Below are positions 25,461 to 59,253 of a DNA stretch of 64,000 nt, piece after piece. The stretch is from Microbacterium sp. 70-16 (GTDB taxonomy: Bacteria > Actinomycetota > Actinomycetes > Actinomycetales > Microbacteriaceae). Both the position numbers and the translations under genes were made by a program. Under the pieces are notes generated by a model. That model did not search any database. It had not been told where the DNA came from and was given only the letters and a program-made list of their open reading frames with translations. Location: the NCBI RefSeq assembly GCF_001898315.1, contig NZ_MKTQ01000009.1:201127-265126 (forward strand), given 5' to 3'. The stretch's first letter is position 1. Each line of letters begins with the position of its first letter.

Positions 25461-25479
25461 CCCCTGGAGGGATTCGAAC
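25461..25479 (+). repeat. Distal attachment site (19-bp direct repeat)
   Basis: cccctggagggattcgaac, identical to 59184-59202 inside tRNA-Arg(CCT). Only the tRNA 3' end is duplicated here; no tRNA can be folded. Confidence 0.9.
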
Positions 25480-44500: not shown

Positions 44501-44545
44501 CTTGCGAACGGACTCGGAAAGGCGGGAGTCGACGGATGCGGTCAT
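41501..44545 (-). CDS. Z1-domain superfamily 2 helicase-like ATPase
   Basis: 1014 residues. Z1-type protein: Walker A VVGHVQSGKTANFTGIVAKA near residue 195, Walker B/DEAD-like IPALIIDDEADQASVN, QYVGYTATPFANVFIS, and GGAKLSRGFTVEGLTVTYY with QMGRWFGYRPGY (motif VI-like). Z1 proteins occur in restriction-like operons together with MORC/MutL-like ATPases and DUF4420 nucleases, where they are taken to be the DNA translocase. The start overlaps the stop of the DUF4420 gene (ATGA). Last gene of the five-gene operon. Confidence 0.85.
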   Translation of the reverse strand: MTASVDSRLSESVRKVLKQIRDTGPDELVDNVTFDLRRTEVTPTEAEIIAAVTVPELNDPARREMHMALAVWDAATSQEWVGETSPATPDRRELIYDRLGLGPEAREALDKAMPSASQMDAMIVDPKNWTPWYDEDRRAAHDFYWRAYRGVLEDKGWDVDALATLDRSTTEIVQRLADPSADKGYQTKGLVVGHVQSGKTANFTGIVAKAVDAGYRLIIVLTGTIELLRGQTQRRLDMELLGEENILGSADRTDPDSIRDIDYIGTQDSDWYAGRFLKHGQDLHALPEVPEIKRLTTVDRDYRKLRLGKDTLDFRRTGEVQDISKPVYAPENIHSVDVRIAVMKKNTTALKNLLHDLKNIRADGKEIPALIIDDEADQASVNTVNPKSAEARAESRKRSAINKLISELLQQLPRAQYVGYTATPFANVFISPDDAEDLFPKDFLVSLQPSSQYMGGRYFHDLGGVPDECRGDPACSNEAAFVRNLKADGDADPAAEAGEIQAALDAFVLTGAIKKWRESIDPAKFSYRHHTMLVHESVSTAEHSELADRFREVWSLGAYSSPAGLARLREHYAKDFVRVHDSREAWADLPLPDSFDALKPYIGQAVDAITAATDPVVVVNGTKESDYNSMDFQTGPYWRVMVGGAKLSRGFTVEGLTVTYYRRKAAAADTLMQMGRWFGYRPGYGDLVRLYIARNVPGPRGKVYDLYDAFTSIIEDEEEFRDQLRKFSEIKEDGRPVVRPIHVPPLVFQQLPWLKPTGTAKMYNAVLKYEGEGGVVKDFNAHDYREDGSRNVKHFAAVKPLLQGLSEVLMFSGVNSTTYRARVGVFSTDVVLEALRSITLYAPDQLSPTISMIEKARAEGTLEDWAVVVPYLGGDYEREVEGSVVSLAERQRRPDRPGFAGSERRHRAALEVITQKPDRTAEGGENAVAYSTPTRGALLLTFAFDPVLTAEEAAKGERADRARVKRDAWPAVITSDNVATLLSLAMPYGSAPRGRIGFAVRREEDADAAIVDSY

Positions 44546-45540
44546 TCAGGAACCTCGCAGAAGTCATTGAGCGGAGCGGGGATCACGGCGTGGTCGAGGT
44601 CCGTGACATTCACACGGTAGGAGACGCTTACGACATTGGCGCGCTGCGGGATGACCTGGTCGAGGCGGTCCGATGTGATCGCGGGGAACGCCTCATCGAC
44701 GAGGTAGGCACGCGGCGTCGACCGCAGCTGGAATCGTGTGCGGTAGAGATCCGCATCGGCGCTGCGCCAGCCCAACCTGTCGAGCGCGGCATCGAACGTC
44801 CGCAGCGTCTGGTCAAGGCGCGCACGCGTGCGGGCGACGGCCTCAGCCAGAGAGAATCCCTGTTCTGCGAGCCCCGCCCGGGTGAGCTGGATTGACACGA
44901 GGTACAGCGGGCGATCCGGCTCGGGCTCGAGCTGGGTCTCCGATCCGATCAGATGCGTACGGCTCTCGGACTTCGTGGTCTTGACCTCCGCATCGAAGTC
45001 CTTGAACGCGAAGTCGTGTTCCTCGGCCAACGGACCGAGCCATGCCTCGATCGCGAGAACCTCCCCCAAGGCGTCGATTGCGTGCTCGAGCACGAGCAGC
45101 TCGCCGAGCAGCCCCCGCGCGGCCTCGTCCGTGAGGCCGCGACGCCCTGCGAGCAGATCCTTGAACGAATGCACCGCGTCCGACACCGCATTGCGGAATG
45201 CTGCACCGCCCTTCATCTGATCGACGACCGACTCCATCAGAACGTAGGCCTCGTAGTGCATGTCCCGCGCCGACACCGCGAGGCGGAACCACTCGCCGCC
45301 GTCGTTGATGATGCGTGAGAAGTCCAGGCGCTCAAGCGCAGTGACGTCGGGGTCCGGACCCGCCGCGGGAGTCAGAAGCTCGATCTCCTCCTGCTGCGGA
45401 AGGATCCGCATGACGATCTGCGGGTCCGTGTGCAGCGGGAACGCCGCCTGCGCGCCCAGCCGGAAGTACGCCTCGACCGTCCGCGGATCGAGGTGCGTGG
45501 GATCGGCACCTGAAGTACCTGCATCACCCTTCGGCGTCAT
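44542..45540 (-). CDS. DUF4420 PD-(D/E)XK nuclease-motif protein
   Basis: 332 residues. Core nuclease pattern: ARGLLGELLVLEHAIDALGE, then FKDFDAEVKTTKSESRTHLI (Asp...Glu-Val-Lys). This matches the DUF4420 family, the restriction-endonuclease-like component linked to Z1 helicases. Start at 45540 has GAGGAGAAGGAG just upstream and overlaps the MORC-like gene by 17 bp. Proposed DNA-cutting effector of the operon. Confidence 0.82.
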   Translation of the reverse strand: MTPKGDAGTSGADPTHLDPRTVEAYFRLGAQAAFPLHTDPQIVMRILPQQEEIELLTPAAGPDPDVTALERLDFSRIINDGGEWFRLAVSARDMHYEAYVLMESVVDQMKGGAAFRNAVSDAVHSFKDLLAGRRGLTDEAARGLLGELLVLEHAIDALGEVLAIEAWLGPLAEEHDFAFKDFDAEVKTTKSESRTHLIGSETQLEPEPDRPLYLVSIQLTRAGLAEQGFSLAEAVARTRARLDQTLRTFDAALDRLGWRSADADLYRTRFQLRSTPRAYLVDEAFPAITSDRLDQVIPQRANVVSVSYRVNVTDLDHAVIPAPLNDFCEVPE

Positions 45541-47050
45541 CGCGCAACTCCTTCTCCTCGCGTGCGGACTCATCCCGCACCGCAGCGGTCAGCAGCTGGC
45601 CCCAGGCGTCCAGCTCAGCCTTCTCACGTGAGCCCAGATACGACCCCTCGAAGTATCTCGAGTAGACGATCGTCAGCAGTGTCTTCACGAGCGGCGCGTC
45701 CTCGTTGTCGGTGCCGTCGCCGCCCGCCATGAGCGATCGGTATGCGCTGTTGATCCAGATCGTGCGGCCCTCGAGATCGAGGGTGACCGGTGATTCGGAT
45801 GCCTCGACGCGCCACCGGATGGCGACAGGCCCACTCTCGTCGGCCTCGACCGACTCAGCGAAAGCCTCGCGCATCGTCGGGCTCATGCCGCGTGCCGGCT
45901 GCACGAGCGAGACAGGTCGCTTGACGTACCGTCGACTCTCGCGCCGACGGTTCTCGGCGGCCTCCAGGAACTCCTGCAATCGCATGCCGCCCGGCTGCAG
46001 CCGCGCGTCGAGCAGCGCATGCTTCGCGTCGGCGTCGAGCTCGAGACCGGCCTTCTCGGGATTGATAGTTACATGCGGTTCGAGCGATCCGTCGATGTCG
46101 ACCGCGATCCGCACGTACTCGAGCTCCGGCCGGTCGACGGTGAGCGTGTTCCAGCCACCGATCTGCAGCAACCGATCGTTGCGGTAGAAATACAACCCCT
46201 GTGCCAGCCCACCGGGACGTCCTCCGAGGCGGAACTCCGGTAGCCCCGCCTGCGACGCAGGCCACACATGCGCCTCGCCGGACGCGGTGATGTTGTCGAT
46301 TTCGAACGTGAGCGCTGCGGGGAAGAGGTCATTGGGCAACCTGCGGTACCCGAAGGGGTCGAGCGCGGTAACGGCGCGCGGTGCACCAGACTCGCCAAGG
46401 AACTCATCCAACACATCGATCGAGACCGCAATGGAGCCAGCAGCCAGGTGCCTGTGGAACACCGTCCCGAGGTGGGTCCGAAGCGCCGCCACTCGTTGAT
46501 CGAGCCACCGGGAGCGATCGCGATTGTCGTCGCTGCTCAGAAATGTCCGCGCACCCACCCACTCGACGACCGTGCCATTCGCCCACGGGAAGTCAACGCG
46601 GAGACCCTGGAGAACATCCGCAGCATGGTCTCCGTCGAGGTCGCCGATCCGCGTCGGATCCTCGGCACCGATTGTCCGGCCGACTGCGAGCGCACCATAA
46701 CGACGGGAGTAGACGTTCAACGTATTGGCTTGACTGAGGGATGCCGCCTTCAGCCCGAGTCCGAAATGACCTTGCTCCGTTTTGTCGTAGGACCTCTTGC
46801 GCGCATAGGCCATCGCGGCATCGATTTGGTCGCCATCCATCCCACGACCGTCGTCAATCACTTGGAGCCCAGTAATGGCACCGTGAGTCTCGAGGAAACG
46901 GATGAGGACGTGGGATGCGCCAGCATCGAGGCTATTGTCGACAAGGTCCGCGACGGCAGTCTCGAAGGTGTGGTGGCGACCCACCGACTTCGCGATCGAC
47001 GGATCGGGTGCCACTTGTTGAAAGCCGGTGACGTGCCGCTCCGCGCTCAT
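45524..47050 (-). CDS. MORC/MutL-like GHKL ATPase
   Basis: 508 residues. GHKL ATP-binding motifs: ADLVDNSLDAGASHVLIRF (N box, ~36-54), VIDDGRGMDGDQI (G1), QGHFGLGLKAASLSQANTL (G2), followed by an S5-like transducer (QGLYFYRNDRLLQIGGWNTL, VTINPEKAGLEL). Fits prokaryotic MORC-like ATPases of restriction-type operons, which dimerise on ATP to form DNA clamps. TGATG overlap with the DUF499 gene. Closely related to the N-terminal half of the sigma fusion at 53359. Confidence 0.87.
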   Translation of the reverse strand: MSAERHVTGFQQVAPDPSIAKSVGRHHTFETAVADLVDNSLDAGASHVLIRFLETHGAITGLQVIDDGRGMDGDQIDAAMAYARKRSYDKTEQGHFGLGLKAASLSQANTLNVYSRRYGALAVGRTIGAEDPTRIGDLDGDHAADVLQGLRVDFPWANGTVVEWVGARTFLSSDDNRDRSRWLDQRVAALRTHLGTVFHRHLAAGSIAVSIDVLDEFLGESGAPRAVTALDPFGYRRLPNDLFPAALTFEIDNITASGEAHVWPASQAGLPEFRLGGRPGGLAQGLYFYRNDRLLQIGGWNTLTVDRPELEYVRIAVDIDGSLEPHVTINPEKAGLELDADAKHALLDARLQPGGMRLQEFLEAAENRRRESRRYVKRPVSLVQPARGMSPTMREAFAESVEADESGPVAIRWRVEASESPVTLDLEGRTIWINSAYRSLMAGGDGTDNEDAPLVKTLLTIVYSRYFEGSYLGSREKAELDAWGQLLTAAVRDESAREEKELRDDAEG

Positions 47051-50000
47051 CAGAGATCCTCGAACCTGTTCGGATAGAGGCCGAGATTCGTTCCGTTCTC
47101 CTTGACCGTGCGGACAACGGATTCGGGAAATCCGTCGGACCGGCCCGCCTCGATGTCGACGCGGATCTCCAGCGTGTCGGGTGCTGCGCCACGCAGGTGC
47201 TCGAGCAGTTCTTCAGCGAGCACGATCACTTGTGCCCTCAGGTCCGCGCCTGGTTTGAGTTCGAGCGTCCCCCGGTAGCGGGCATTGCGGATAGGTGCTG
47301 GCGGTCGCTGCGGAGCCGGTTTGGGAGTGTGTTCTGGGGACAGGTCAGGCTGCGGATGAGGACCGGGAATGGGGACGACCGCAGCAGTCTCCCGGTCACG
47401 CTGCGCGCGCGCGAGCGCGGGTGAGACGAGAAGCATGTCGTCGGTCAAGACGGCTGGCGCGGCGTCCTCAATCGGCAAACGCAGGCCGACGAAGTCCCCG
47501 GTCGCGTCGTCATAGCCGTCGGCGAGGGCGAACCCGATACCCTCCCAGCCGAGGTCGGTCATCGCACCGGAGATCGCATCGAGGAGCACCTGCTTCTCGC
47601 GGAGCCGGGCGAGGTAGGGATACCGCGAGTGGAACTCCCACAGTTCGCCGATGCTGATGCGCCCAGCGTTCCATCTGCTTCGCAGCACGTTCTGCAGTTC
47701 GATCGCGATCGATTGCATCGAGAAATGCGCAATGACGATGTCGTTCTTCTCGAACTTGTCGCCGACCGTGCGGATCACCGACTCGGTGGCGCCGTCGGCC
47801 TTGATCTGGGATGTCGTCCACGGCTCGTTCGCCTGCGGCTGTTGCGGATAGAGCCCCCAGATCCACGTCTCACGAATGCGCTGGTCGACAGTGCGGTTGA
47901 ACGTCGTCACACGGTTCTGCGCCGTCTCTGCCTGACCTTGCGTGAGGTCGAGAGTCTTTCGCGACTCATGCACGCCCCGCCAGGCGAGGTACTGGCGAAC
48001 AGACTGCTCGAGATCGGTCCATCGCGACTGGTCGGGAGCGAGCACGACGACGGTGTTGACGTTCTGGCGCGGGGCGTTCCCCCTGGTCGACGCGAGCTCG
48101 CGCGTGAAAGCGTGCGCCTTCGACTCGTAGCTCTTGCCGTCGTGTACGTGCTGTGGGCCCGCCACGACGAGGCGCACACGTTCGGATTCGGCGACGTCTG
48201 CCGAATCGTCGGGTGCGAAGACGACGTCGGCGAATGCGCCGGGATGCCCCGGATGCCGGCGGATGCGGCCGATGACCTCGGCTGCGACGTCGGCCTCCGA
48301 GAACGACTGCGCGCGCTCCGCGACGGTGCGGTTGAGCGAGACCTGGAGGTCGAACCAGAAGCGGTCGCCCTCGGCGTAGAGATAGGTCGCACGCTCGCCG
48401 AGCAGCTGCAGCGCGCTGCCGAAGTTCCCAATGGTGTCGCCGGGCATAGCGACGCCAAGGAACATCCGCTTGCGCTCGACGCCCTTGTGATTGGCGCCGA
48501 GGGTCGCCGCCGACCCGACGAAGGCGGCCCGCGCGATGCGCCGGGTGAGCGCGCGCCCGCCGAACAGCGGCTTCTCCTTGTCGACGAGCACCGCCGTGGC
48601 GTTGGTCCCGTCGATGTCACTCTCGATGACCGACTTCCAGCGGTCGCCGTCGTCGAGGTAGCCAGTGAGCTCGTCGCGCACCGCGGCCGAGTCGAGCGGG
48701 ATGGACCCAGGCATGATGAGCGGCGAGTCGTCGCCGGCAGCGTGTAGGGCGTGCACGACGGCGCTCATGAGGCGAAGCACGCCGCGAGTACGCTGGAATT
48801 TCTCCAGCGTCGACCAGTCGCCGTAGAGTCGGTCGAACAGCTCGGGATGGATCGGGTAGGCGCTGCGGATGCGATCCTCATACGACGACTCGCGCGTCTC
48901 GGCGGGGAGTTCCCCGACGCTGCGGCGGTAGTACTCGACGAACGTCTTTGCGGTCGCGTCGATCCGTCGCTGAGCGGCGGCGTCCGGCTCGCGGAAGAGC
49001 CGGCGCCGCACGATCTCGAACGACTCGTTGCTGCTCGCGGGCGTCCACGGCTGCGCAACGCGGGTGACGACGTTCTGCAGGCGTTCGAGCGCTGCACGGC
49101 CGTGCGCACCGCCGACTTCGAGATCGGATGCCACAGCTGCGTCATCATCGCGTCGGATGTCGGATGCCGGGATGGAGACGAGCAGCAGCGCCTGCGGTAC
49201 CGACTTGACGGCCTCGGTGAGCTGCTGGGCGAAGGTGAACTGCGTCTCGAAGGTGCCGCCGACGAGGTCGTCCTGTCCGTACAACCCGCGGGCGTAGGCA
49301 ACCCATTCGTCGATGAGGATGATCGACGGCGAGTTCTGTGCAATGACGGTGCGCATCGCGGCACCCGGATTGGTGCCAGTGCGGTCGGCCTCGGCGACGA
49401 GGGCGTATGCGTCGGCACCGCCCAGTTGCCAGGCGATCTCGCCCCACAGCGTGCGGATCTCGGTGCCGTCGGGCTTGGTCCACGGCTGGCCGGGAGAGAG
49501 CTCATTGCCGACGATCGCGACGCGGCGCACGTCCTGCGCGACGGCTGCGGGGTTGACGTCGAGCGCGGCGACCGCGTCTTGCACGCCCTGCGGGAAGTCG
49601 GCCAGTGGGCGGCCACTGAACAGGTGCCAGGCCGCGAGCATCGAGTGGGTCTTGCCACCACCGAATGCGGTCTGCAGGTTGACGACCGGCGCAGCGTTCA
49701 TGTCGCCCGCGAGGCGTCGCACGGCGATGCCGAGCAGGTTCTTCAGACCTTCGGTGAGGAAGGTCCGCTGGAAGAACTCGACGGGGTCGTTGTAGTCGAC
49801 GGATGCCTCGGCACCGGTGGCGACCTGATACAGGTCAGCCGCGAACTCCGCGCGCGCGAAGTCATTGGCCGCGATATCGGCGTGTGGCTGGAGGACATCG
49901 CGCCATGGGGTGAGCTCGGAGGACGCGAGTCCGGGCATTCCTGAGGAGGACCGGGTGTCACGGCGAGTCTCATCGGCGTAGGCCGAGCGCTGCACGTCGA

Positions 50001-50409
50001 GACGTGTCTTCCGCACACGGTCGGCCGCAGGACCCGACCCGATCGCACGGAGCAGGCGCTCGATCGTGTCGAGCGCGCGGTAGGCGTCGTCGGCGCTGAA
50101 CGGCTTCCGGTGCGCCCACGAGTCGCGCACGGCGCGCGTCTCGCTGGCGAGGTTCTGCTCAGCGCGCGAGAGAACGTCGTTGAAGGCGTACTTGAGCGCG
50201 CCGAGCGGTTCGGTGATGACCCGCAGCTGCACCTGCGGGTCGGCGGGCGAGTACTCCTTGCCTGCGATGTCGTCCTTCGCTGCGAGGATCAGGGTCCAGT
50301 CGTGCGCGCCGGCGGGAAGGTGCGGCGAGAGCACGCGCGCGACGAACGGCTCGAGCTCTGCGGCGAGGATGTCGAGCGCACCGCCCACGCGGTCGAGGTT
50401 GGATGCCAC
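47050..50409 (-). CDS. DUF499-family ATPase
   Basis: 1119 residues. AAA-like ATPase with Walker A NLQTAFGGGKTHSMLAAWHL near residue 250 and Walker B SPSIILIDEWVAYARG; a long C-terminal part ends in a Pro-rich linker and a small domain. The GTG at 50409 is preceded by GGAGG; 88 codons of open frame before it are a shadow of the methylase 3' end. DUF499 genes usually sit beside DUF1156 methylases, as here, in defence islands (the ATPase and methylase of Hma-type systems, from memory). Confidence 0.83.
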   Translation of the reverse strand: MASNLDRVGGALDILAAELEPFVARVLSPHLPAGAHDWTLILAAKDDIAGKEYSPADPQVQLRVITEPLGALKYAFNDVLSRAEQNLASETRAVRDSWAHRKPFSADDAYRALDTIERLLRAIGSGPAADRVRKTRLDVQRSAYADETRRDTRSSSGMPGLASSELTPWRDVLQPHADIAANDFARAEFAADLYQVATGAEASVDYNDPVEFFQRTFLTEGLKNLLGIAVRRLAGDMNAAPVVNLQTAFGGGKTHSMLAAWHLFSGRPLADFPQGVQDAVAALDVNPAAVAQDVRRVAIVGNELSPGQPWTKPDGTEIRTLWGEIAWQLGGADAYALVAEADRTGTNPGAAMRTVIAQNSPSIILIDEWVAYARGLYGQDDLVGGTFETQFTFAQQLTEAVKSVPQALLLVSIPASDIRRDDDAAVASDLEVGGAHGRAALERLQNVVTRVAQPWTPASSNESFEIVRRRLFREPDAAAQRRIDATAKTFVEYYRRSVGELPAETRESSYEDRIRSAYPIHPELFDRLYGDWSTLEKFQRTRGVLRLMSAVVHALHAAGDDSPLIMPGSIPLDSAAVRDELTGYLDDGDRWKSVIESDIDGTNATAVLVDKEKPLFGGRALTRRIARAAFVGSAATLGANHKGVERKRMFLGVAMPGDTIGNFGSALQLLGERATYLYAEGDRFWFDLQVSLNRTVAERAQSFSEADVAAEVIGRIRRHPGHPGAFADVVFAPDDSADVAESERVRLVVAGPQHVHDGKSYESKAHAFTRELASTRGNAPRQNVNTVVVLAPDQSRWTDLEQSVRQYLAWRGVHESRKTLDLTQGQAETAQNRVTTFNRTVDQRIRETWIWGLYPQQPQANEPWTTSQIKADGATESVIRTVGDKFEKNDIVIAHFSMQSIAIELQNVLRSRWNAGRISIGELWEFHSRYPYLARLREKQVLLDAISGAMTDLGWEGIGFALADGYDDATGDFVGLRLPIEDAAPAVLTDDMLLVSPALARAQRDRETAAVVPIPGPHPQPDLSPEHTPKPAPQRPPAPIRNARYRGTLELKPGADLRAQVIVLAEELLEHLRGAAPDTLEIRVDIEAGRSDGFPESVVRTVKENGTNLGLYPNRFEDL

Positions 50410-50410
50410 G

Positions 50411-53239
50411 TCATGCCTCCAGATCGTCGAAGTCAAGGGTGGGTGCGTCGAGCGCTTCGGGCTTCTCGGCTGCGGATGCCGCGGCGGCTCGCACCTCGGG
50501 CCACGACGACCCGAGCGTGTTGAAGAGGATGCCCGCCTGGGTGAGGCCCTTCTTCTCAGCGATCGAGTAGAGGAGGTAGGCGAGCTCGTGCGCCGACGCG
50601 GTGTCGACTCCGCGCGCCTCGGCGCCTGCCAGGATGCGCCCGGCGGCGTCGAGGCCCTGCGCGGAAAGGGCACGCGCCATGTGCAGCACGACCTCCCAGA
50701 GCGAGATGCGATCGTCGGTGCGCGGGTCGTAGCTGGCCGGGAGCTCCTCCGGGGAGAACAGCTTCACCTTGCCGCCGCCGCTGGAGACCGCCCCGCCGCG
50801 CGCGAGGGCAGCAACTGACGCGTTCTTTGCACTGGCGAGGGTCTCGGCCTCGCCGTACGAGGCGACGTCGAAGCCATGCGTCTCGAACCACGCCACGCAC
50901 CAGCGTGTGTCGTCGTCGAAGTCGCCCTCCTGCGCGGAGAGCACCTCATCGAGCACGCCGTTGATCGCACGCAGCGCGTCGCGCACACTCATGGCTTCGC
51001 CGGACGGTTCCACAACGCGCGCATACCTCGAGAATGTCGCCATGCCGGGACCGATCGCGGCCTGGGCCATGTCGACCGGTGCGACGCTGCCCTGCTGCAG
51101 ATCACGCAACGCCTCGGGAAGCGTGGCCTTCAGCTCGGCGAGGACTCCGCGGCGATCGATGATCGGCGCGTCGGTGGGACGAGGGCGAAGCGCGAGCACG
51201 ATCGAGGACGCCAGCGCGTTCGTTCCCGACGCGATCATGCGGTTGCCGAGCTCGGAGCGCACCGGCCAGGTCGCCGTCACGGTCCACCCTGCGCGTACCA
51301 TGCTGCCGAGGATGGTCTCCCATCCCGTCGAGGCCGTTCCACTCGCGTCCGTCTCGGACTGTTTGAACGCGTAATACACCGTGATCGGGAACTGGTCCGT
51401 CGCCGTCTCGCGAGCGTGCTCGAAAACGTGCTCGAAGCCGTCCTCAAAGAACGATCGAGCACCATCCTTGCCACCGTGGCGATACGGATTGGCGACCAAT
51501 TCATCTGCCTTGGGAACGAGCATCGTCTGGGTCAGTTTCGCTTGCACTGAACGCAGCGAGCGGCGCAGCCAGACGTAGAAGAAGTCCGACAGGTCCGAGT
51601 AACCGATGTTGTCGTAGTACGGCGGATCCGTGGATATCAGCACACCCGCGTACGGCCGGTTGGCCGCATCCTGCTGCACAGCCACCCCGGCTGTCCGCGC
51701 TGGCAGCCGTTCTAGTGTCGTAACCACATTGCCGATCTGACGGGACACCGTGCCCGCTGCCTCACCGAGAAGGGCGCCCTCCGCGAAGTCCCAGATCATT
51801 GGGATTGCTTGCCGCGCGAAGAGATGACCAACACCTTCGTTCTTCGGATCGCTCCGCCACGAGCAGAGCGCATTCTGGTAGTCAGTCGACTTGGATATCG
51901 CGAATCCCAGGTAGGTGGCGACTGCGTCGGCGTAGGCGGCAGCGCCGGAGCCGCCCTGCTCGAGGCGGTCTCCCTCGTCGAGGCCTGCGGCCAGGGCATC
52001 CTGCAGCACCCGCTCGCGCGCTTCGCCGACGAGGTCGCTAAAGGTCGTCAGCGCCGTCAGCTGTCGGTTCGTGAACAGCGACGCGAAGGTGCTCATGCCG
52101 TAGTTGGGCGTCTTGAAATCGCGCGGGTTGGCGGCGAGGTCTCCGAGCGGGACATCGACGGGCACGGGCACCGAGGCCGCATCGACGTCGGCGGGCGTCG
52201 GCGCCGTATAGATGCGCTGCCGCTTCCCTTCTGCGACTATCGCCATCAGATGCGTACCCAGTCCGTGGTACTTTCCTTGCGCCCGGATGTACTTCAGCGG
52301 GACGGCAGAATCGCATCCGATACAAGTTGCACCGAGCCTGCCGACAGTGCCGTCGTCATCTTTCGTCGGGGCATCCTTCGGGTCGTGACCGATCGAGTAC
52401 TCCACCCGTCCGTCGACGACGGTGGGGACGACGTACGCCTCCTTGCCCTTCTTCTTGCCGAGCCACCACGAGCGAACGAGGGGCATCTCGATGCCGCAGG
52501 CGGGATTGGGGCAGGTGACGGTGCGGGCCCAGATCCAGGCGATGACGTTCGCCTCGGTGCCGTCGTCGAGGCGCGCCTTCGGGTAGAGGTGTCCGATGCG
52601 CGTCTGCGCCTCGTCCCGCATCCATTCGCCGTAGCGGCGCACGTCATCCGCGAGGCCGGTCGCCTTCGGCCAGTGAGTGCGGGTGCCCTCCGCACCAGGG
52701 AACACGGGCGGGCGGTCGGCAAAACGCGGGGGGATCTCGATGAGCGCCTTGTTGATGAGTACGGCGACCGGGTTGAGGTCACTCGCGTGCGCTTCGAGTC
52801 CGAGCCGCTGCGCCTCGAGCGGGATCGTCCCACCGCCAGCAAAGGGATCGAGGATGGCGGGCGGGTTGCCATCGGTCGAGCGGCGGATCTCTGCGCGCAC
52901 CTCGTCGAAGAGAGCCTCGTCGCCGAGGTTGTCCCAGTCGACCATCCGAGTGATGAGGTCGAACAGACGCTCGCGCTCGGCGTCGACGCGCGCGGCGGCG
53001 TGCGCGGCAGCGTCCTCAACGCCGCTTTTCTCGGCCTCGGCGCGGTACTCGTCGAGGTTCTCGCCCGGGTCGTCGACAAGCTGCGCGAAGAGCACGGCGC
53101 GCGCGGTCGCGAGCGGGCGACGAGCCCACCACAGGTGCAGCGTCGAGGGGTGCCCGTGACGGATCGACTTCTCGCGCGCGGACTGCGCATTGATCGCCTC
53201 GAGCGGCAGCGCGACCTCGATCAGCTTCTTCTTGGACAC
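50411..53239 (-). CDS. DUF1156 DNA methyltransferase (N6-adenine/N4-cytosine type)
   Basis: 942 residues. N-terminal DUF1156 signature KKKLIEVALPLEAINAQSAR, then STLHLWWARRPLATARAVLF. AdoMet motif ILDPFAGGGTIPLEAQRLGL near 130 and the amino-methylase motif ISTDPPYYDNIGYSDLSDF near 535; a zinc-ribbon-like C-x4-C pair (TCPNPACGIE, TCIGCDS) lies between. GTG start at 53239 after GGGGAGT. First gene of the operon, probably giving the self-mark. Only 119 bp separate it from the divergent MORC-sigma gene. Confidence 0.87.
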   Translation of the reverse strand: MSKKKLIEVALPLEAINAQSAREKSIRHGHPSTLHLWWARRPLATARAVLFAQLVDDPGENLDEYRAEAEKSGVEDAAAHAAARVDAERERLFDLITRMVDWDNLGDEALFDEVRAEIRRSTDGNPPAILDPFAGGGTIPLEAQRLGLEAHASDLNPVAVLINKALIEIPPRFADRPPVFPGAEGTRTHWPKATGLADDVRRYGEWMRDEAQTRIGHLYPKARLDDGTEANVIAWIWARTVTCPNPACGIEMPLVRSWWLGKKKGKEAYVVPTVVDGRVEYSIGHDPKDAPTKDDDGTVGRLGATCIGCDSAVPLKYIRAQGKYHGLGTHLMAIVAEGKRQRIYTAPTPADVDAASVPVPVDVPLGDLAANPRDFKTPNYGMSTFASLFTNRQLTALTTFSDLVGEARERVLQDALAAGLDEGDRLEQGGSGAAAYADAVATYLGFAISKSTDYQNALCSWRSDPKNEGVGHLFARQAIPMIWDFAEGALLGEAAGTVSRQIGNVVTTLERLPARTAGVAVQQDAANRPYAGVLISTDPPYYDNIGYSDLSDFFYVWLRRSLRSVQAKLTQTMLVPKADELVANPYRHGGKDGARSFFEDGFEHVFEHARETATDQFPITVYYAFKQSETDASGTASTGWETILGSMVRAGWTVTATWPVRSELGNRMIASGTNALASSIVLALRPRPTDAPIIDRRGVLAELKATLPEALRDLQQGSVAPVDMAQAAIGPGMATFSRYARVVEPSGEAMSVRDALRAINGVLDEVLSAQEGDFDDDTRWCVAWFETHGFDVASYGEAETLASAKNASVAALARGGAVSSGGGKVKLFSPEELPASYDPRTDDRISLWEVVLHMARALSAQGLDAAGRILAGAEARGVDTASAHELAYLLYSIAEKKGLTQAGILFNTLGSSWPEVRAAAASAAEKPEALDAPTLDFDDLEA

Positions 53240-53388
53240 CAGACTCCCCAGACACGTACCAGCGGCCGTCGTGCACGGGTGGAGCATTCTCCGGCCAGAG
53301 ACTCTTCCTTTCTATCGCATGGACACGGCTTCGTTCGCACGGCGTTGTAGGGTCCGGCATGTCCGACGCTGTGCGTACGATCACAGCC
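53240..53388. promoter_or_regulatory. Divergent promoter region between the methylase operon and the MORC-sigma gene
   Basis: TACGAT at 53376-53381 stands seven bases before the ATG at 53389 and fits a leaderless start for the MORC-sigma gene, in which case translation begins 10 codons after the ATG at 53359. No convincing -35 or methylase-operon promoter was recognised by eye. Confidence 0.4.
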
Positions 53389-56013
53389 ATGACGTACCTC
53401 GCCGACGCAGACGATGCGGATACGACCACGCCGGTCACCGTGGAGCTGCAACCCGACGCATCGATCCTTGCGGCCATCGGTCGCGGGCACGACCTGGCCT
53501 CCGCCATCGCCGACCTCGTCGACAACAGCATCGATGCCGGTGCGACGCGCATCGGCGTCCAGTTCGTGACGAAGGACGCCCGTGTGAAGTCGGTGCGGAT
53601 CCGCGACGACGGGTGCGGCATGACCGGCGACCAGTTGCAACACGCGATGGCGCTCGGCGGATCCGAGAAGCAGGGCACGGGCAAGCTCGGACACTTCGGC
53701 GTCGGGCTCAAGGCCGCGTCCATGAGCCAGGCGACAATGCTCGCAGTGTTCTCTAGCACGGGGTTCGCGCCAGCGGCCGGGATGCGACTTCACCGTGAGC
53801 AGTCCGGTCCGCAGATCCAGGCCGAGGTGGTTCCCGCGTCAGCCGCGGCGAATGTACTGCGGCTGCGCGGGTTTGACACCGACGCGGGCACGCTCATCGA
53901 GTGGTACGGGTTGGAGAGCGTCTCGGAGGCGACGGGGTGGCATGCGCGCCGGAAGTGGCTCGAGACCATGATCACTTCGCTGCGCGACTCGCTGGGCATG
54001 ACGTTCCACCGCCTGCTCGCCGATGACGGTCTGCGGATCGAGATCCAGGAGGTGGACGAGACGACCGCGGAGTCGGGCCCGCCTCGCGCAGTGAAACCCG
54101 TCGACCCGTTCGCATTCGAGCAGTGGGGCGCCGCTGGCTACCCGCGAGCGCTGTCGGTGCCTCCGTCGACGGGCGGGGCGATCTCTGCACTTTTCTTCGT
54201 CCTGCCGCCTGGGGTGGAGGCCCCGAGTGCTCGGATGCTGGGCCGATCGCGGGCACACTGGCAAGGGCTCTACGTGTACCGGAACAACCGGCTGCTGCAG
54301 GCGGGCGGCTGGCTCGGGCTTGCCGAGAGATCGGATGCGCTGCAACTGGGCCGCGTGATCCTCGAGTTCGACGACGACGCGCGCTGCGCAATCGCGATGA
54401 ACGCCGAGAAGCGCGGCGTCGTACTGCGACCATCCGCAGTGCAGGCGCTCGAGAGCGCACACGAGGGTGGCTTCACGCTCAACGGGTACTTCGCCGAGCT
54501 GCGTGAGGTCTGGACGAATTCGCAGAAGCATGAGCTCAAAGCGCAGCCTGTCGCACGCCCCGGCGACGGAGCGCCCGATGGATTGCTGCCGCTCGTGACG
54601 AGCACAATCGGTGTGCGTGATGAGGATCCGGCACTGAGCTTCGTGATTGAAGCTGTACCGCCGGGGGCGCTGTACGCGTTCGAGCCGGGCACGGGCATCG
54701 TAAGGATCGCTCCTTCGCTCGCAGCGCGGTCGGATCTCGAGCTGCTGAAGACGAGCCTGTTCCTCCTGCTCGAGCCGCATGTCGGCAAGCAATGGCTCGC
54801 GGAGCACACCCGGCGGAAGCTAGACGTGGTGCACGCGGCGTTCGCCGCAGCGGTATCGGCCTCAGTTGTGGCACCGGATTCCGCCGCTGTTGCGGACGGG
54901 GGCGAGAACGAACCCGAGGAGATCGCGCGAGACTTATCCGAGGACGCGGAACCGAACGCACCACCCGACCTGGCGGACGAATCGGCAGGCGAAGAGCCGC
55001 CCGCGTTGATCCGCACGACGATCATCCACACCGCGGACCAGGATGAGCCGTTGGGAGACCCGGCTGTCGCGAACGTTCACGTCGACGAGGACCCCGTCAA
55101 GGACTACATGGCTCGGGCAGGCCGTGCTCCACTCCTCAGCGCTGACGAGGAAGTGGAGGTCGCTCGACGGATCGAAGTCGGCGTTCTCGCGGCCGAGCGC
55201 CTGCGTACGCTGGTACCCACTGATCATCCGCGCTCGTACCCGCGTGAGTTGAGGATGCTCGTTCGCGACGGCGAGCACGCGATGCAGACAATGATCGAAG
55301 CGAACCTCCGGCTCGTGATCTCGATCGCGCGGAAGCATCTCGGTGGTGGGATGGAAATGCTCGACCTCATCCAGGAAGGCAACATCGGTCTCCACCGTGC
55401 GGTCCAGAAGTTCGACTATCGGCTCGGGAACAAGTTCTCGACGTACTCGACGTGGTGGATCCGACAAGGCATGACCCGGGCGATGGCCGATCAAAGCCGG
55501 CTGATACGGTTTCCTGTTCACATTGTCGAGAAGCTCCCGAAGGTCGCGAAAGCGTGGGAGGAATCGACCGGCACCATCGAGCAGCGGCTATCGGCTGTCG
55601 CAGCGCAAGTCGAGGAAGCACCGAAGGCGTTGCGGTCGATCATCGACAACATGTATCCGCCACTGTCCCTCGACTATCAGCGGGCGATCGATGCGGGAGA
55701 TGACACGGTCGAGTGGGGCACACTCGCAGACCAGGTCGTCGATACCGAGGCCTACGGGCCCGACGACGTCGCTACGACGCGGGAACTACCTCGCCGCATC
55801 GCCACGGTCTTGGGCAGTCTGCCCGAGCAGCACAGCGAAATCCTCCGGCTGCGGTTCGGCCTCGACGGGAAGGACGCGCAGACCCTCGACACGATCGGCG
55901 ATCACTTCGGCGTCACGCGGGAGCGCATCCGCCAGATCGAGAAGAAGGCGCTGACCAGACTCGAGGAGATCGCGCCCGCGTTTGACTTGAGGGAGTACCT
56001 TCAGTCCCCCTGA
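53359..56013 (+). CDS. MORC-like GHKL ATPase fused to a sigma-70 factor
   Basis: 884 residues (874 if started at 53389). Residues ~45-400: GHKL ATPase with N box IADLVDNSIDAGATRIGVQF, G1 RDDGCGMTGDQ, G2 KLGHFGVGLKAASMSQATML, and transducer QGLYVYRNNRLLQAGGWLGL as in the MORC-like protein of the facing operon. Residues ~500-570: acidic linker. Residues ~578-884: sigma factor with region 1.2 (EDPVKDYMARAGRAPLLSAD), region 2 (EANLRLVISIARKHLGGGME, LDLIQEGNIGLHRAVQKFDY, YSTWWIRQGMTRAMADQSRL), region 3 and region 4.2 (GVTRERIRQIEKKALTRLEE). All sigma regions look intact. I know no described family with this architecture. Confidence 0.92.
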   Translation: MSDAVRTITAMTYLADADDADTTTPVTVELQPDASILAAIGRGHDLASAIADLVDNSIDAGATRIGVQFVTKDARVKSVRIRDDGCGMTGDQLQHAMALGGSEKQGTGKLGHFGVGLKAASMSQATMLAVFSSTGFAPAAGMRLHREQSGPQIQAEVVPASAAANVLRLRGFDTDAGTLIEWYGLESVSEATGWHARRKWLETMITSLRDSLGMTFHRLLADDGLRIEIQEVDETTAESGPPRAVKPVDPFAFEQWGAAGYPRALSVPPSTGGAISALFFVLPPGVEAPSARMLGRSRAHWQGLYVYRNNRLLQAGGWLGLAERSDALQLGRVILEFDDDARCAIAMNAEKRGVVLRPSAVQALESAHEGGFTLNGYFAELREVWTNSQKHELKAQPVARPGDGAPDGLLPLVTSTIGVRDEDPALSFVIEAVPPGALYAFEPGTGIVRIAPSLAARSDLELLKTSLFLLLEPHVGKQWLAEHTRRKLDVVHAAFAAAVSASVVAPDSAAVADGGENEPEEIARDLSEDAEPNAPPDLADESAGEEPPALIRTTIIHTADQDEPLGDPAVANVHVDEDPVKDYMARAGRAPLLSADEEVEVARRIEVGVLAAERLRTLVPTDHPRSYPRELRMLVRDGEHAMQTMIEANLRLVISIARKHLGGGMEMLDLIQEGNIGLHRAVQKFDYRLGNKFSTYSTWWIRQGMTRAMADQSRLIRFPVHIVEKLPKVAKAWEESTGTIEQRLSAVAAQVEEAPKALRSIIDNMYPPLSLDYQRAIDAGDDTVEWGTLADQVVDTEAYGPDDVATTRELPRRIATVLGSLPEQHSEILRLRFGLDGKDAQTLDTIGDHFGVTRERIRQIEKKALTRLEEIAPAFDLREYLQSP

Positions 56014-56141
56014 TATCGTACTTATGCATGAATGTCGGAGGGAGTATCTAGTCTCGATAGTATGAGATATGTTCCTTCCGCAGCTCGTTTGAGGACGTGC
56101 GACACCACGTTAGGTGCGGCGGCGCGACCGCCGCGGCCGGC
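56014..56141. other. AT-richer gap upstream of the cytosine methyltransferase gene
   Basis: Contains TATCT...AGATA arms (about 56046-56074) that could form a weak hairpin after the MORC-sigma gene. No gene seen. Confidence 0.35.
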
Positions 56142-56147
56142 TAGGAT
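56142..56147 (+). promoter_or_regulatory. -10 element of a leaderless promoter for the cytosine methyltransferase gene
   Basis: TAGGAT, then eight bases, then the GTG at 56156. Confidence 0.5.
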
Positions 56148-56155
56148 TGGGCACC

Positions 56156-57247
56156 GTGGCTGACGACATCCGGGTACTCGATCTCTTCGCCGGAGCCGGC
56201 GGGCTTACTGCTGGCTTTCACAAGGCCTCTGCGCGTTTCGTCAGTGTCGCAGCGGTGGAGAAAGACCTCGCCGCCGCCGCTTCGTATGAGGCCACGTTCG
56301 GTGACGGTGTCGTGTTCGCAGGAGGCATCGACGAGTGGCTCGACACCGCGACGATGCCCGAAGACATCGATGTCGTCGTCGGCGGCCCACCCTGCCAAGG
56401 ATTCTCCACGCTCGGCAAGCGACAGGAAGAGGACCACCGCAACGAGCTGTGGCGCTCATACGCGCGCACGATTCTCGCAGTGAAGCCAAAGTACTTCGTC
56501 GTAGAGAACGTCGCAGTCTTCGAGAAGTCTCGTCAGTTCCAGGACTTCCACAAGGCCACCGAGCCGGGCGAGTTCCTTGAGGACTATCACTTCCAGCACC
56601 GTGTGCTGAACTCGGCAGATTTCGGTGCCGCGCAGTCCCGTAAGCGAGCGGTGCTCATTGGATACAGGCGGGATCTCCCCTTCCCAGGTTTGCCGGAGCC
56701 CACGCACAACTCCGAAGGCACCGGTGGACTGCAGCGCTACGAGTGGGTCAAGGACGTCTTTGCGCGTATCCCGGTAGATCCCGACAGGGACGACGTGTTC
56801 GACACCAAGTCCATGATTTTCGCGGGCAAGACTTTCGCCGGGGCCTTCACCCCGCGTGAGCTTCATTGGAGCCGCAACTATACGACGAAGTCTTTGGAGC
56901 GGTTCGAGGACATTCCTGCGGGCGGCAACCGGTTCAACATCGATGAGTCACGATTGCCGGAGTGCTGGAAGAAGCACAAGACCGGCTCAGGCGATGTCAT
57001 GGGCCGACTGCATCTCGACCGCCCGTCGGTGACGATCCGAACGGAGTTCTTCAAGCCGGAGAAGGGCCGTTACCTGCACCCGACGAAGAACCGCGCGATC
57101 ACCCACTATGAGGCGGCCATGCTTCAGGGCTTCCCACTGAACCACCAGTTCGTCGGCTCGAAGACTGCCATCGCACGCCAGATCGGCAACGCCGTGCCGA
57201 TCCCTCTGGGCACCGCCGTCGCGCGACAGCTACTGACGGTCCTGTGA
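56156..57247 (+). CDS. DNA (cytosine-5) methyltransferase
   Basis: 363 residues with all key motifs in order: I RVLDLFAGAGGLTAGF, IV VVGGPPCQGFSTLGKRQ (catalytic Cys), VI YFVVENVAVF, VIII AAQSRKRAVLIGYR, IX RPSVTIRTEF and RAITHYEAAMLQGFP, X IARQIGNAVPIPLG. The target-recognition region lies at ~residues 225-290. The GTG start at 56156 is supported by the leaderless promoter; the frame opens at 56114 without support. Likely marks host DNA for the neighbouring MORC-sigma or operon system. Coupled to the next gene by GTGA. Confidence 0.93.
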   Translation: MADDIRVLDLFAGAGGLTAGFHKASARFVSVAAVEKDLAAAASYEATFGDGVVFAGGIDEWLDTATMPEDIDVVVGGPPCQGFSTLGKRQEEDHRNELWRSYARTILAVKPKYFVVENVAVFEKSRQFQDFHKATEPGEFLEDYHFQHRVLNSADFGAAQSRKRAVLIGYRRDLPFPGLPEPTHNSEGTGGLQRYEWVKDVFARIPVDPDRDDVFDTKSMIFAGKTFAGAFTPRELHWSRNYTTKSLERFEDIPAGGNRFNIDESRLPECWKKHKTGSGDVMGRLHLDRPSVTIRTEFFKPEKGRYLHPTKNRAITHYEAAMLQGFPLNHQFVGSKTAIARQIGNAVPIPLGTAVARQLLTVL

Positions 57248-57579
57248 GCGACGCGAGCGATTCCCTATTCGACCTGTCGCAGCCTGACGTCGACGAGCGT
57301 CCCACTCCCCCGCCGGCGGCCGCGCCGATGATGTCCGCCGCTCAGCGCGCCAAGATCCGTGCACTCTTCGGTGAGCTCGGCGTCACGACTGCGCGCGACC
57401 AGTTCGCCGTCGTCAAGGAACTCACGGGGACGACGATCGCGTCCGTCGCGGAGCTCACCGCGGCAACGGCGCATCGCCTGAGCGAGCGCCTCGCTGCTCG
57501 CGTGCGCGATGCTGGCAAGACCCGCACAGGCAATTCGTGGGACGACCGCGAGGAAGACACCTGGATCGACCGGCTGTGA
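57244..57579 (+). CDS. Small protein coupled to the methyltransferase
   Basis: 111 residues. GTG start overlaps the methyltransferase stop (GTGA). The core, SAAQRAKIRALFGELGVT, then KELTGTTIASVAELTAATAH, resembles the short helical module found at the C-termini of several phage and plasmid DNA-handling proteins (x-R-x-K-I-x-A-L-F...E-L-T...A). The ends are low-complexity and acidic. It may recruit the methyltransferase or a nuclease to DNA; this is a guess. Confidence 0.7.
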   Translation: MSDASDSLFDLSQPDVDERPTPPPAAAPMMSAAQRAKIRALFGELGVTTARDQFAVVKELTGTTIASVAELTAATAHRLSERLAARVRDAGKTRTGNSWDDREEDTWIDRL

Positions 57580-57842: not shown

Positions 57843-58973
57843 ATGGGCACCATCACCTCGTACGAGACGTCGAAGGGCCGCCGCTACCGCGTGCGCTATT
57901 ACAAGCCGGATCGGACCGAGACGCAGAAGCGCGGCTTCACGACGATGCGCGACGCGCAGCTGTACCTCTCCTCGGTCACGGTGTCGAAGTCGAAGGGCGA
58001 GTACATCGATCCCGCAGCGTCGCGGGTGCCGGTCCGGATGTTTGCCGACAGCTGGCTGCGCTCCAAGCAGCCGCCGATGTCGAAGCCTTCGTACTACATG
58101 ACCCTCGAGCGGGCATGGAAGAACCACGTCGCTCCCGTCTGGGGAGACCGCGAGATCTTCACGATCCGGCGCTCTGAAGTGCAGGACTGGGTGTCCGAAC
58201 TCGCGACAGAGAAATCGAGCACCGTCGTCATCCGGGCGCTCGGCGTCCTCGCCGGCATCCTCGACGTCGCCATCGATGACCGACGACTCGCGACCAATCC
58301 CGCCCGCCAGATCCGCAACCTCCCGCGAAGGGGGCCGGGCAAGCGCCGCGTCTACCTCACGCACGACCAGGTCGCGACCCTCGCCGCGTGCTCGGCGCAC
58401 CCGGCCATGGTCCTGACGCTCGCCTACACAGGCCTGCGCTGGGGCGAGGCGACTGCACTGCGGGTACGTGCGGTGAACCGGCTTCGCAAGCGCTTCATCA
58501 TCGAAGAGAACGCGGTGATGATCGGCTACGAGATCCACGTCGGAACGCCAAAGACGCACAAGTCGCGCTCGGTCCCCTACCCCGACCGCCTCGCGTCGAT
58601 GATCGAGCAGGCCTGCGCCGGCAAAGGCCCCGAGGGGCTGCTCTTCGGCGACGGCGAGCACCACATGCGCAACTCGGGCAGCCAGGGCTGGTTCGCGAAC
58701 GCCGTGAAGCGGGCGCAGGCGATCGATCCGTCGATCCCGCGGCTCACGCCGCACGACCTGCGCCACACTGCCGCCTCACTCGCGATCAGCTCGGGCGCGA
58801 ACGTGAAGGCCGTGCAGCGGATGCTCGGTCACGCGTCAGCAGCGATGACCCTCGATACCTACGCCGACCTCTTCGACGACGATCTGGATGCCGTCGCGTC
58901 GCGCCTCAACGACGCCATGCCGCTCGTGCCTCTGCCGACCGGCCCGCAGACCCGCTACCCCCGGCCGCAGTGA
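57843..58973 (+). CDS. int: Tyrosine-type site-specific integrase
   Basis: 376 residues. N-terminal arm-binding domain (SKGRRYRVRYYKPDRTETQK), core-binding domain (FADSWLRSKQPPMSKPSYYM), and catalytic domain with the tetrad: Arg in YTGLRWGEATALRV, HDLRHTAAS (His-x-x-Arg), LGHASAAMTLDTYADL (His/nucleophile Tyr). Adjacent to the tRNA-Arg attachment site, 209 bp from the repeat, it would catalyse integration and excision of this element. Confidence 0.95.
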   Translation: MGTITSYETSKGRRYRVRYYKPDRTETQKRGFTTMRDAQLYLSSVTVSKSKGEYIDPAASRVPVRMFADSWLRSKQPPMSKPSYYMTLERAWKNHVAPVWGDREIFTIRRSEVQDWVSELATEKSSTVVIRALGVLAGILDVAIDDRRLATNPARQIRNLPRRGPGKRRVYLTHDQVATLAACSAHPAMVLTLAYTGLRWGEATALRVRAVNRLRKRFIIEENAVMIGYEIHVGTPKTHKSRSVPYPDRLASMIEQACAGKGPEGLLFGDGEHHMRNSGSQGWFANAVKRAQAIDPSIPRLTPHDLRHTAASLAISSGANVKAVQRMLGHASAAMTLDTYADLFDDDLDAVASRLNDAMPLVPLPTGPQTRYPRPQ

Positions 58974-59181: not shown

Positions 59182-59253
59182 TGCCCCTGGAGGGATTCGA
59201 ACCCCCGACCCGCTGCTTAGGACGCAGTGGCTCTTCCACTGAGCTACAGAGGC
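59182..59253 (-). tRNA. tRNA-Arg (anticodon CCT), integration target
   Basis: 72-nt cloverleaf: acceptor GCCTCTG/CAGGGGC with discriminator A, D-stem GCTC/GAGC, anticodon loop GTCCTAA (anticodon CCT, reads AGG), T-stem GGGGT/CCTCC-type with TTCGAATC loop. Its 3' 19 bases (minus one pair and the discriminator) form the attachment repeat, so the gene was restored by the incoming element. Confidence 0.92.
59184..59202 (+). repeat. tRNA-proximal attachment site (19-bp direct repeat)
   Basis: cccctggagggattcgaac inside tRNA-Arg(CCT), identical to 25461-25479. Confidence 0.9.

What the first reader, a model, noticed from the sequence alone, without database searches (positions are those of the whole stretch)
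53359..56013. A MORC-like GHKL ATPase fused to a complete sigma-70 factor
One uninterrupted reading frame joins a GHKL ATPase (N box, G1, G2 and transducer all visible) to a sigma factor with regions 1.2, 2, 3 and 4.2. The sigma part is strikingly like the housekeeping factor (YSTWWIRQGMTRAMADQSRL; GVTRERIRQIEKKALTRL), so it should bind core RNA polymerase and ordinary promoters. MORC-like ATPases are known from restriction-type operons and form ATP-driven DNA clamps. Joining one to a sigma factor suggests a sensor that loads on DNA and recruits RNA polymerase there, or that takes over transcription on infection. It faces a defence operon that contains a second, stand-alone MORC-like ATPase and precedes a DNA methyltransferase. 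I know of no described system with this fusion.
Basis: partly seen in the sequence, partly recalled or inferred. Interest (0 to 1): 0.97.

Follow-up and report, generated by a model that had tools for sequence, protein, structure and literature searches.

The report
MORC ATPase fused to sigma factor
A single gene on a mobile DNA island of a Microbacterium joins a MORC-type ATPase to a sigma factor, the part that tells RNA polymerase which gene to read; the fusion is conserved in close to ninety proteins and, wherever its neighbours were examined, lies beside restriction-type defence genes, which it likely switches on.

The parts
53359..56013 (+). MORC-sigma fusion gene, 884 aa; likely true start at 53389 (M11)
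   Evidence: M11 at least 90% conserved in 43 aligned fusions
53494..54867 (+). MORC half: GHKL ATPase plus S5/transducer domain, residues about 46-503; N box D52/N56, G1 D83xG85xG87, G2 GHFGVGLK, transducer K351, MORC motif GLYVYRNNRLL at 303-313
   Evidence: Pfam; 88-89 of 89 fusions keep N56, D83, G87, G111, F113, G116, R308, R311, W318, K351; pLDDT mostly 79-93, under 50 at 101-115
54868..55077 (+). flexible linker, residues 504-573
   Evidence: pLDDT under 50 throughout
55090..56001 (+). sigma-70 half, residues 578-881: regions 1.2, 2, 3 (divergent) and 4
53308..53319 (-). conserved promoter-like element, TGCGATAGAAAG read towards the hmaB operon, 68 nt before its likely GTG start (53239)
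53288..53301 (-). possible leader hairpin (TCTCTGGCCGGAGA) just after the element; weak
   Evidence: of seven leaders folded only one (G513) folds clearly better than its shuffles; the window's own does not
56114..57247 (+). C5-cytosine DNA methyltransferase (Dcm type), directly downstream of the fusion
   Evidence: PF00145 E 1.4e-59; same place in 10 of 10 fusion loci
50411..53239 (-). hmaB-like DUF1156 adenine methyltransferase; first gene of the divergent operon
   Evidence: PDLC00660 1109.7 bits; start
47050..50673 (-). hmaC-like DUF499 AAA+ ATPase with an N-terminal HEPN_Swt1 domain
45524..47050 (-). second, stand-alone MORC ATPase (MzaB-like, 508 aa)
   Evidence: falls with the stand-alone MORCs in the tree
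44542..45573 (-). PD-(D/E)XK nuclease-like protein, DUF4420 (MzaD-like)
41501..44545 (-). [not shown]
57244..57579 (+). 111-aa protein overlapping the methyltransferase end; no family; among the other loci examined one relative, near mzaC in G345
57843..58973 (+). tyrosine integrase of the island

Best explanation
[not shown]
For: Sigma half: of 89 fusions, D403 is kept in 89, Q406 and E407 in 88, W433 in 88, W434, Q437, R441 and R451 in 89; R562, R584, E585, R586, R588, Q589 in 87 of the 87 with a letter there (E. coli RpoD numbering; their roles are recalled). pN/pS 0.098 for sigma, 0.15 for MORC in the close pair G447/G620. Linker 504-573 is predicted disordered, so the sigma half could move freely. 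Best fold matches are actinobacterial SigA chains in initiation complexes (E 1.9e-20, but TM-score of the target only 0.45-0.48 in the first 18 rows). Element: 6 of 9 fusion loci other than the window carry it with at most one mismatch in the stretch before the operon; none of 500 letter-permuted 12-mers hit more than one locus. It lies 65-69 nt before hmaB in 5 of 5 fusion loci with hmaB, and none of the four hmaB operons without a fusion that were read has it. The exact form occurs once in 3.13 Mb. A separate sigma gene in MZA says that this kind of system uses one.
Against: G679, which has no sigma half and groups with sigma-less relatives, has TGCGATAGAGAC 22 nt before mzaD, and fusion-less G193 has AAGCTAGAAATG before hmaB, like the TAGGCTAGAAA of fusion loci G447/G620: the element may belong to another factor. 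Fusion locus G759 has none. No -35 box stands out (read by eye). In G091 and G345 another GHKL gene lies between the fusion and the element. T440 is kept in only 66 of 89; the sigma finger (513-516) is not kept; 423 and 425 match the genome's own SigA (K, F) in only 19 and 19 of 89: initiation may be weak or absent. The sigma label changes at least five times on the MORC tree while the slot stays, so the system can work without it. Nothing shows gating by ATP or by phage, or any defence by this locus.
Confidence: 0.42

Rival explanations
1. Transcription-coupled restriction: the sigma half docks the MORC clamp on RNA polymerase at promoters of incoming DNA, so that MORC, helicase and nuclease are loaded where invading DNA is first transcribed. 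Sigma is an address tag, not a regulator.
For: Most contacts for core, -10 and -35 are kept while the finger, which helps initiation (recalled), is not, as expected of a factor that binds promoters without firing them well. Some sigma-less relatives have HTH-like tails (over a Pfam cut-off in P0131, under it in P0083 and P0129, none in P0132), another possible DNA tag. RAD25-like helicase-sigma and DndB-sigma fusions exist, so sigma is grafted on different enzymes.
Against: Does not explain the element conserved in the system's own leader or its single exact copy in the genome.
Confidence: 0.25
2. Bait: the sigma half imitates the housekeeping factor and is caught by phage anti-sigma proteins or polymerase inhibitors, which releases the MORC half to act.
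For: The sigma half looks like SigA at its binding surfaces; phage interference with host transcription as a trigger of defence is reviewed in PMC12409349 (passages).
Against: Most -10 and -35 DNA contacts are as conserved as the core-binding ones, which a bait would not need; sigma is far from identical to SigA (43% to Microbacterium sigma loci L007, L009 and L010).
Confidence: 0.1
3. The conserved element belongs to a different regulator (or is a leader element of the mRNA) and the sigma half is only a DNA-binding domain that helps MORC hold DNA.
For: A degenerate element in sigma-less G679 and a variant-like one in fusion-less G193; its absence in fusion locus G759; no visible -35; a possible leader hairpin beside it (weak).
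Against: Core-polymerase residues D403, Q406, E407 in 88-89 of 89 fusions have no evident role in plain DNA binding; sigma shows no relaxed selection in the pair tested.
Confidence: 0.15
4. Artefact: two genes joined by a sequencing or assembly error.
For: None found.
Against: 88 other proteins with both halves, from several sequence sources; 10 genomes with the same order; one open frame here.
Confidence: 0.01

Closest known systems
MZA (mzaABCDE) anti-phage system (Gao 2020, not read; NCBIfam NF041931-NF041934; PADLOC PDLC02203-02206)
MORC restriction-modification operons, third type, of Iyer, Abhiman and Aravind 2008 (PMC2292703)
   Same: MORC with the GhXhhpXXRhl motif, helicase with DThhQXuRhFG, restriction-fold nuclease, often cytosine methylase; a second GHKL family in some, as seen here in G091 and G345.
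   Different: No sigma factor there: the word 'sigma' does not occur in the held text; parts 1 and 2 of section 3 read.
Hma system / Type-1 DUF499-centred BREX-related systems (PADLOC; PMC12839542, passages)
   Same: HmaB (1109.7 bits) and HmaC (840.2 bits) are typical, HmaC with the N-terminal HEPN.
Housekeeping SigA / group 2 sigma factors
   Same: About 42-43% identity, same regions, most core and promoter contacts.
   Different: A MORC ATPase in place of region 1.1; sigma finger not kept, residues 423/425 and 440 variable.

Membership tests
MORC family (Iyer 2008) | four GHKL ATP-binding motifs | tested here: met
   N56, D83, G87, G111, F113, G116 in 88 of 89 fusions, one gap; PF13589. The general-base position holds Asp (D52) in 86 of 89 (1 Glu, 2 gaps), not Glu as recalled for MutL
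MORC family (Iyer 2008) | S5 domain with GhXhhpXXRhl and a basic residue | tested here: met
   GLYVYRNNRLL at 303-313 against the motif as printed; R311 and K351 89 of 89
third MORC operon type (Iyer 2008) | SFII helicase with DThhQXuRhFG and a restriction-fold nuclease; methylase frequent | tested here: met
   [not shown]
sigma-70 family | regions 1.2, 2 and 4 over Pfam cut-offs | tested here: met
sigma-70 family | core-binding residues of region 2.2 | tested here: met
   D403 89, Q406 88, E407 88 of 89
primary (group 1) sigma factor | acidic sigma finger (513-516) and aromatic residue at 425 | tested here: not met
   425 is Thr 46, Phe 19, Asn 14, Tyr 4 of 89
sigma-70 family | binds core RNA polymerase and starts transcription | not testable with these tools
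   needs biochemistry
MZA system | MzaA-MzaD over curated cut-offs | tested here: not met
   266/800, 109/850, 271/1500, 81/420 bits
MZA system | AIPR protein MzaE in the operon | tested here: not met
   no AIPR family among nine proteins scanned; the rest of the window was not scanned
Hma / Type-1 BREX-related system | HmaB and HmaC | tested here: met
Hma / Type-1 BREX-related system | HmaA helicase-nuclease | tested here: not met
   not among the nine proteins scanned

The most novel reading that the evidence does not exclude
The first sigma factor built into an ATP-driven DNA clamp: the MORC half senses unmodified or invading DNA and, by closing or opening on ATP, releases its own sigma half, which fires one dedicated, non-standard promoter (TGNGATAGAAAG) to flood the cell with the restriction machinery. 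It would be a one-protein sensor-to-promoter switch, a bacterial counterpart of human MORC3, which restricts viruses and controls interferon expression.
Probability: 0.33. Interest if true: 0.93.

Novelty: new variant of a known kind. Interest (0 to 1): 0.78.

Why it matters
It ties, in one conserved protein, a MORC ATPase to the promoter-recognition subunit of RNA polymerase. It could explain why MZA-type systems carry a sigma factor at all, and it gives a named promoter-like element, a named deletion (sigma half) and a named in vitro test. How restriction-type defences time their own expression is an open question that this makes testable. Sigma grafted also on a RAD25-like helicase and on a DndB protein hints at a wider habit.

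Tried and rejected
Assembly join: rejected (89 proteins, 10 loci). Global transcription takeover: no support, the exact element occurs once in the genome (the 12-mer with one mismatch allowed gave one exact and two one-mismatch sites). Leader hairpin as an RNA switch: weak, 1 of 7 leaders folds clearly better than shuffles. Relatives on plasmids: 8 records, all under 60% identity, annotated as ATP-binding proteins or not at all; whether any continues into sigma was not looked at. Relatives in viral contigs: none, by a scan that finds close relatives only. The one genome-contig scan listed 80 loci whose matches covered only the sigma part of the query, apparently housekeeping or related sigma factors; 17 of the 80 served as rows in the sigma tree. 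L066 fell among fusions in that tree but is a 531-aa frame with no MORC half. The first conservation table used only 76 fusions chosen partly by the string WIRQ, which made W434 and Q437 circular; replaced by all 89. The first tree labels were wrong for the same reason; replaced. Whether sigma was gained once and lost, or gained repeatedly, is not decided: at least five changes.

Print searches (open-licence PMC, listings only, capped): no listed title or abstract describes the fusion; most of the listed papers were not opened. Gao 2020 is not held. Papers: PMC2292703, abstract, parts 1 and 2 of 3 of section 3 and a word search; PMC9523054, PMC10924106, PMC12839542 and PMC12409349, passages only.

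Full report
What is there. The frame 53359-56013 is open over 884 codons. Pfam places a GHKL ATPase at its start and sigma-70 regions 1.2, 2 and 4 at its end. A model from 43 aligned relatives has mean pLDDT 78 and pTM 0.46; both halves are mostly confident, and residues 504-573 between them are under pLDDT 50. The relative placing of the halves is therefore unknown. By Foldseek the sigma half is nearest to mycobacterial SigA chains in transcription initiation complexes, about 42% identical, with low TM-scores (0.39-0.48 of the target in the 50 rows shown), probably because the sigma regions are arranged differently (the reason is inferred). By sequence, the MORC half finds MutL, PMS and eukaryotic MORC2, 3 and 4 chains. 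It has the motif by which Iyer and co-workers unify the MORC family, GLYVYRNNRLL.

How widely it occurs. Two searches of 5.8 billion proteins (each lists its best 120 of about 8,000 scored) and a check for both halves gave 89 fusions, the window's own included: a lower bound. Those of the first search are 36-91% identical to it. Those named to genus are all Microbacteriaceae. Some stop after sigma (about 870 aa); others (1030-1170 aa) continue into a tail, in which HTH families score weakly or not at all. MORCs with a tail but no sigma also exist (27 rows), as do MORCs without a long tail like the second one in the window (31 rows). On the MORC tree the sigma label changes at least five times; P0129, P0131 and P0132 are sigma-less rows nested among fusions. 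Sigma is thus a module that comes and goes. The fusion is rare in genomes: 5 of 398 in a family sample and 5 of 366 in the genus, the window's genome counted in both; a second family sample of 399 added one. The genus is Microbacterium: contig lengths of G430 and G447 equal those of M. dauci and M. foliorum proteins.

Is the sigma half alive? Over 89 fusions, most residues that contact core polymerase, the -10 and the -35 elements (roles recalled, E. coli numbering) are kept almost without exception. Exceptions: T440 (66 of 89), E458 (78, Asp in the other 11), the sigma finger 513-516, and 423 and 425, where the genome's own SigA has K and F and the fusions have these in 19 and 19 of 89. In the closest pair with DNA (G447, G620) pN/pS is 0.098 for sigma, 0.15 for MORC and 0.70 for the tail (crude counting, one pair, 8 and 31 non-synonymous changes in sigma and MORC). 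So sigma is under selection, as a binder of polymerase and promoter-like DNA, perhaps with altered opening or start. On a sigma tree 86 fusions need only three changes of label beside SigA; one helicase-sigma (G133) and the DndB-sigma protein fall among them, P0090 among SigA, in a tree with many weak forks.

A candidate promoter. Reading the gaps side by side showed an element that, towards the operon, reads TGNGATAGAAAG. With the window's 12-mer as query, 6 of the 9 other fusion loci hold it before the operon with at most one mismatch; of 500 letter-permuted 12-mers, 492 hit no locus, 8 hit one, none hit more (stretches of 250-490 bases, but 2200 and 1940 in G091 and G345). The motif was chosen after looking, and the loci are related, so the figures are a guide, not a p-value. 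G447 and G620 have TAGGCTAGAAA at the same place; G759 has no match with up to two mismatches. It lies 65-69 nt before the hmaB start in 5 of 5 loci with hmaB and a fusion. Of four hmaB operons without a fusion none has it: G014 and G133 show TAGACT and TAAGAT, which fit an ordinary actinobacterial -10 (recalled), G074 nothing evident, and G193 has AAGCTAGAAATG, close to the variant of G447 and G620. Further against the link, sigma-less G679 has TGCGATAGAGAC 22 nt before mzaD, and G679 groups with sigma-less relatives, so it is not a recent loser of sigma. Sigma-less G267 has no match with up to two mismatches. In the window's genome exact TGNGATAGAAAG occurs once in 3,129,463 bases. The element can be read as a -10 hexamer TGNGAT (TANNNT with G for A at -11) and an AGAAAG discriminator, or as an extended -10, TGN plus GATAGA. 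No transcription start is known, and no -35 box is evident.

Known or new. The parts file under MORC restriction operons of the third type and near MZA, whose MzaA is a sigma factor, but under no MZA model's cut-off; the genome's own SigA scores higher against MzaA than the fusion does. HmaB-HmaC belong to Hma, also called Type-1 BREX-related systems. No description of the covalent MORC-sigma join turned up in the print searches (open-licence papers, listings only). The join also acts as a Rosetta stone: it suggests that sigma and MORC of MZA-type systems work together.

Noticed in passing
window 25461-59202: A 19-bp direct repeat (CCCCTGGAGGGATTCGAAC) at 25461 and within tRNA-Arg (59184-59202), with an integrase beside it, marks a ~33.7-kb island that carries the whole system.
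   Followed up: partly
window 30799-33534 (-): A 911-aa frame that looks like a conjugative relaxase with helicase motifs inside the island, so the island may be mobilisable (read from the translation; no family search).
   Followed up: no
P0090; G133:C1:313234-315792; G233:C3:212114-214465: RAD25/ResIII-like helicase fused to a sigma-70 half, three cases (P0090 is marked partial by its source); in G133 within 10 kb of Mrr_cat and GmrSD_C restriction proteins.
   Followed up: partly
P0108: DndB (DNA-sulfur-modification-associated) protein fused to a sigma-70 half, one case.
   Followed up: no
G091:C1:827808-829460; G345:C19:288716-290599: A further GHKL protein of a different type between the fusion and the divergent operon, perhaps one of Iyer's paraMORC families (no family search).
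   Followed up: no
window 57244-57579 (+): 111-aa protein of no known family overlapping the end of the methyltransferase gene; a relative lies near mzaC in G345.
   Followed up: no
G345:C19:295979-302509: A 2177-aa frame near the fusion locus shares the HEPN_Swt1 region of HmaC at its start.
   Followed up: no
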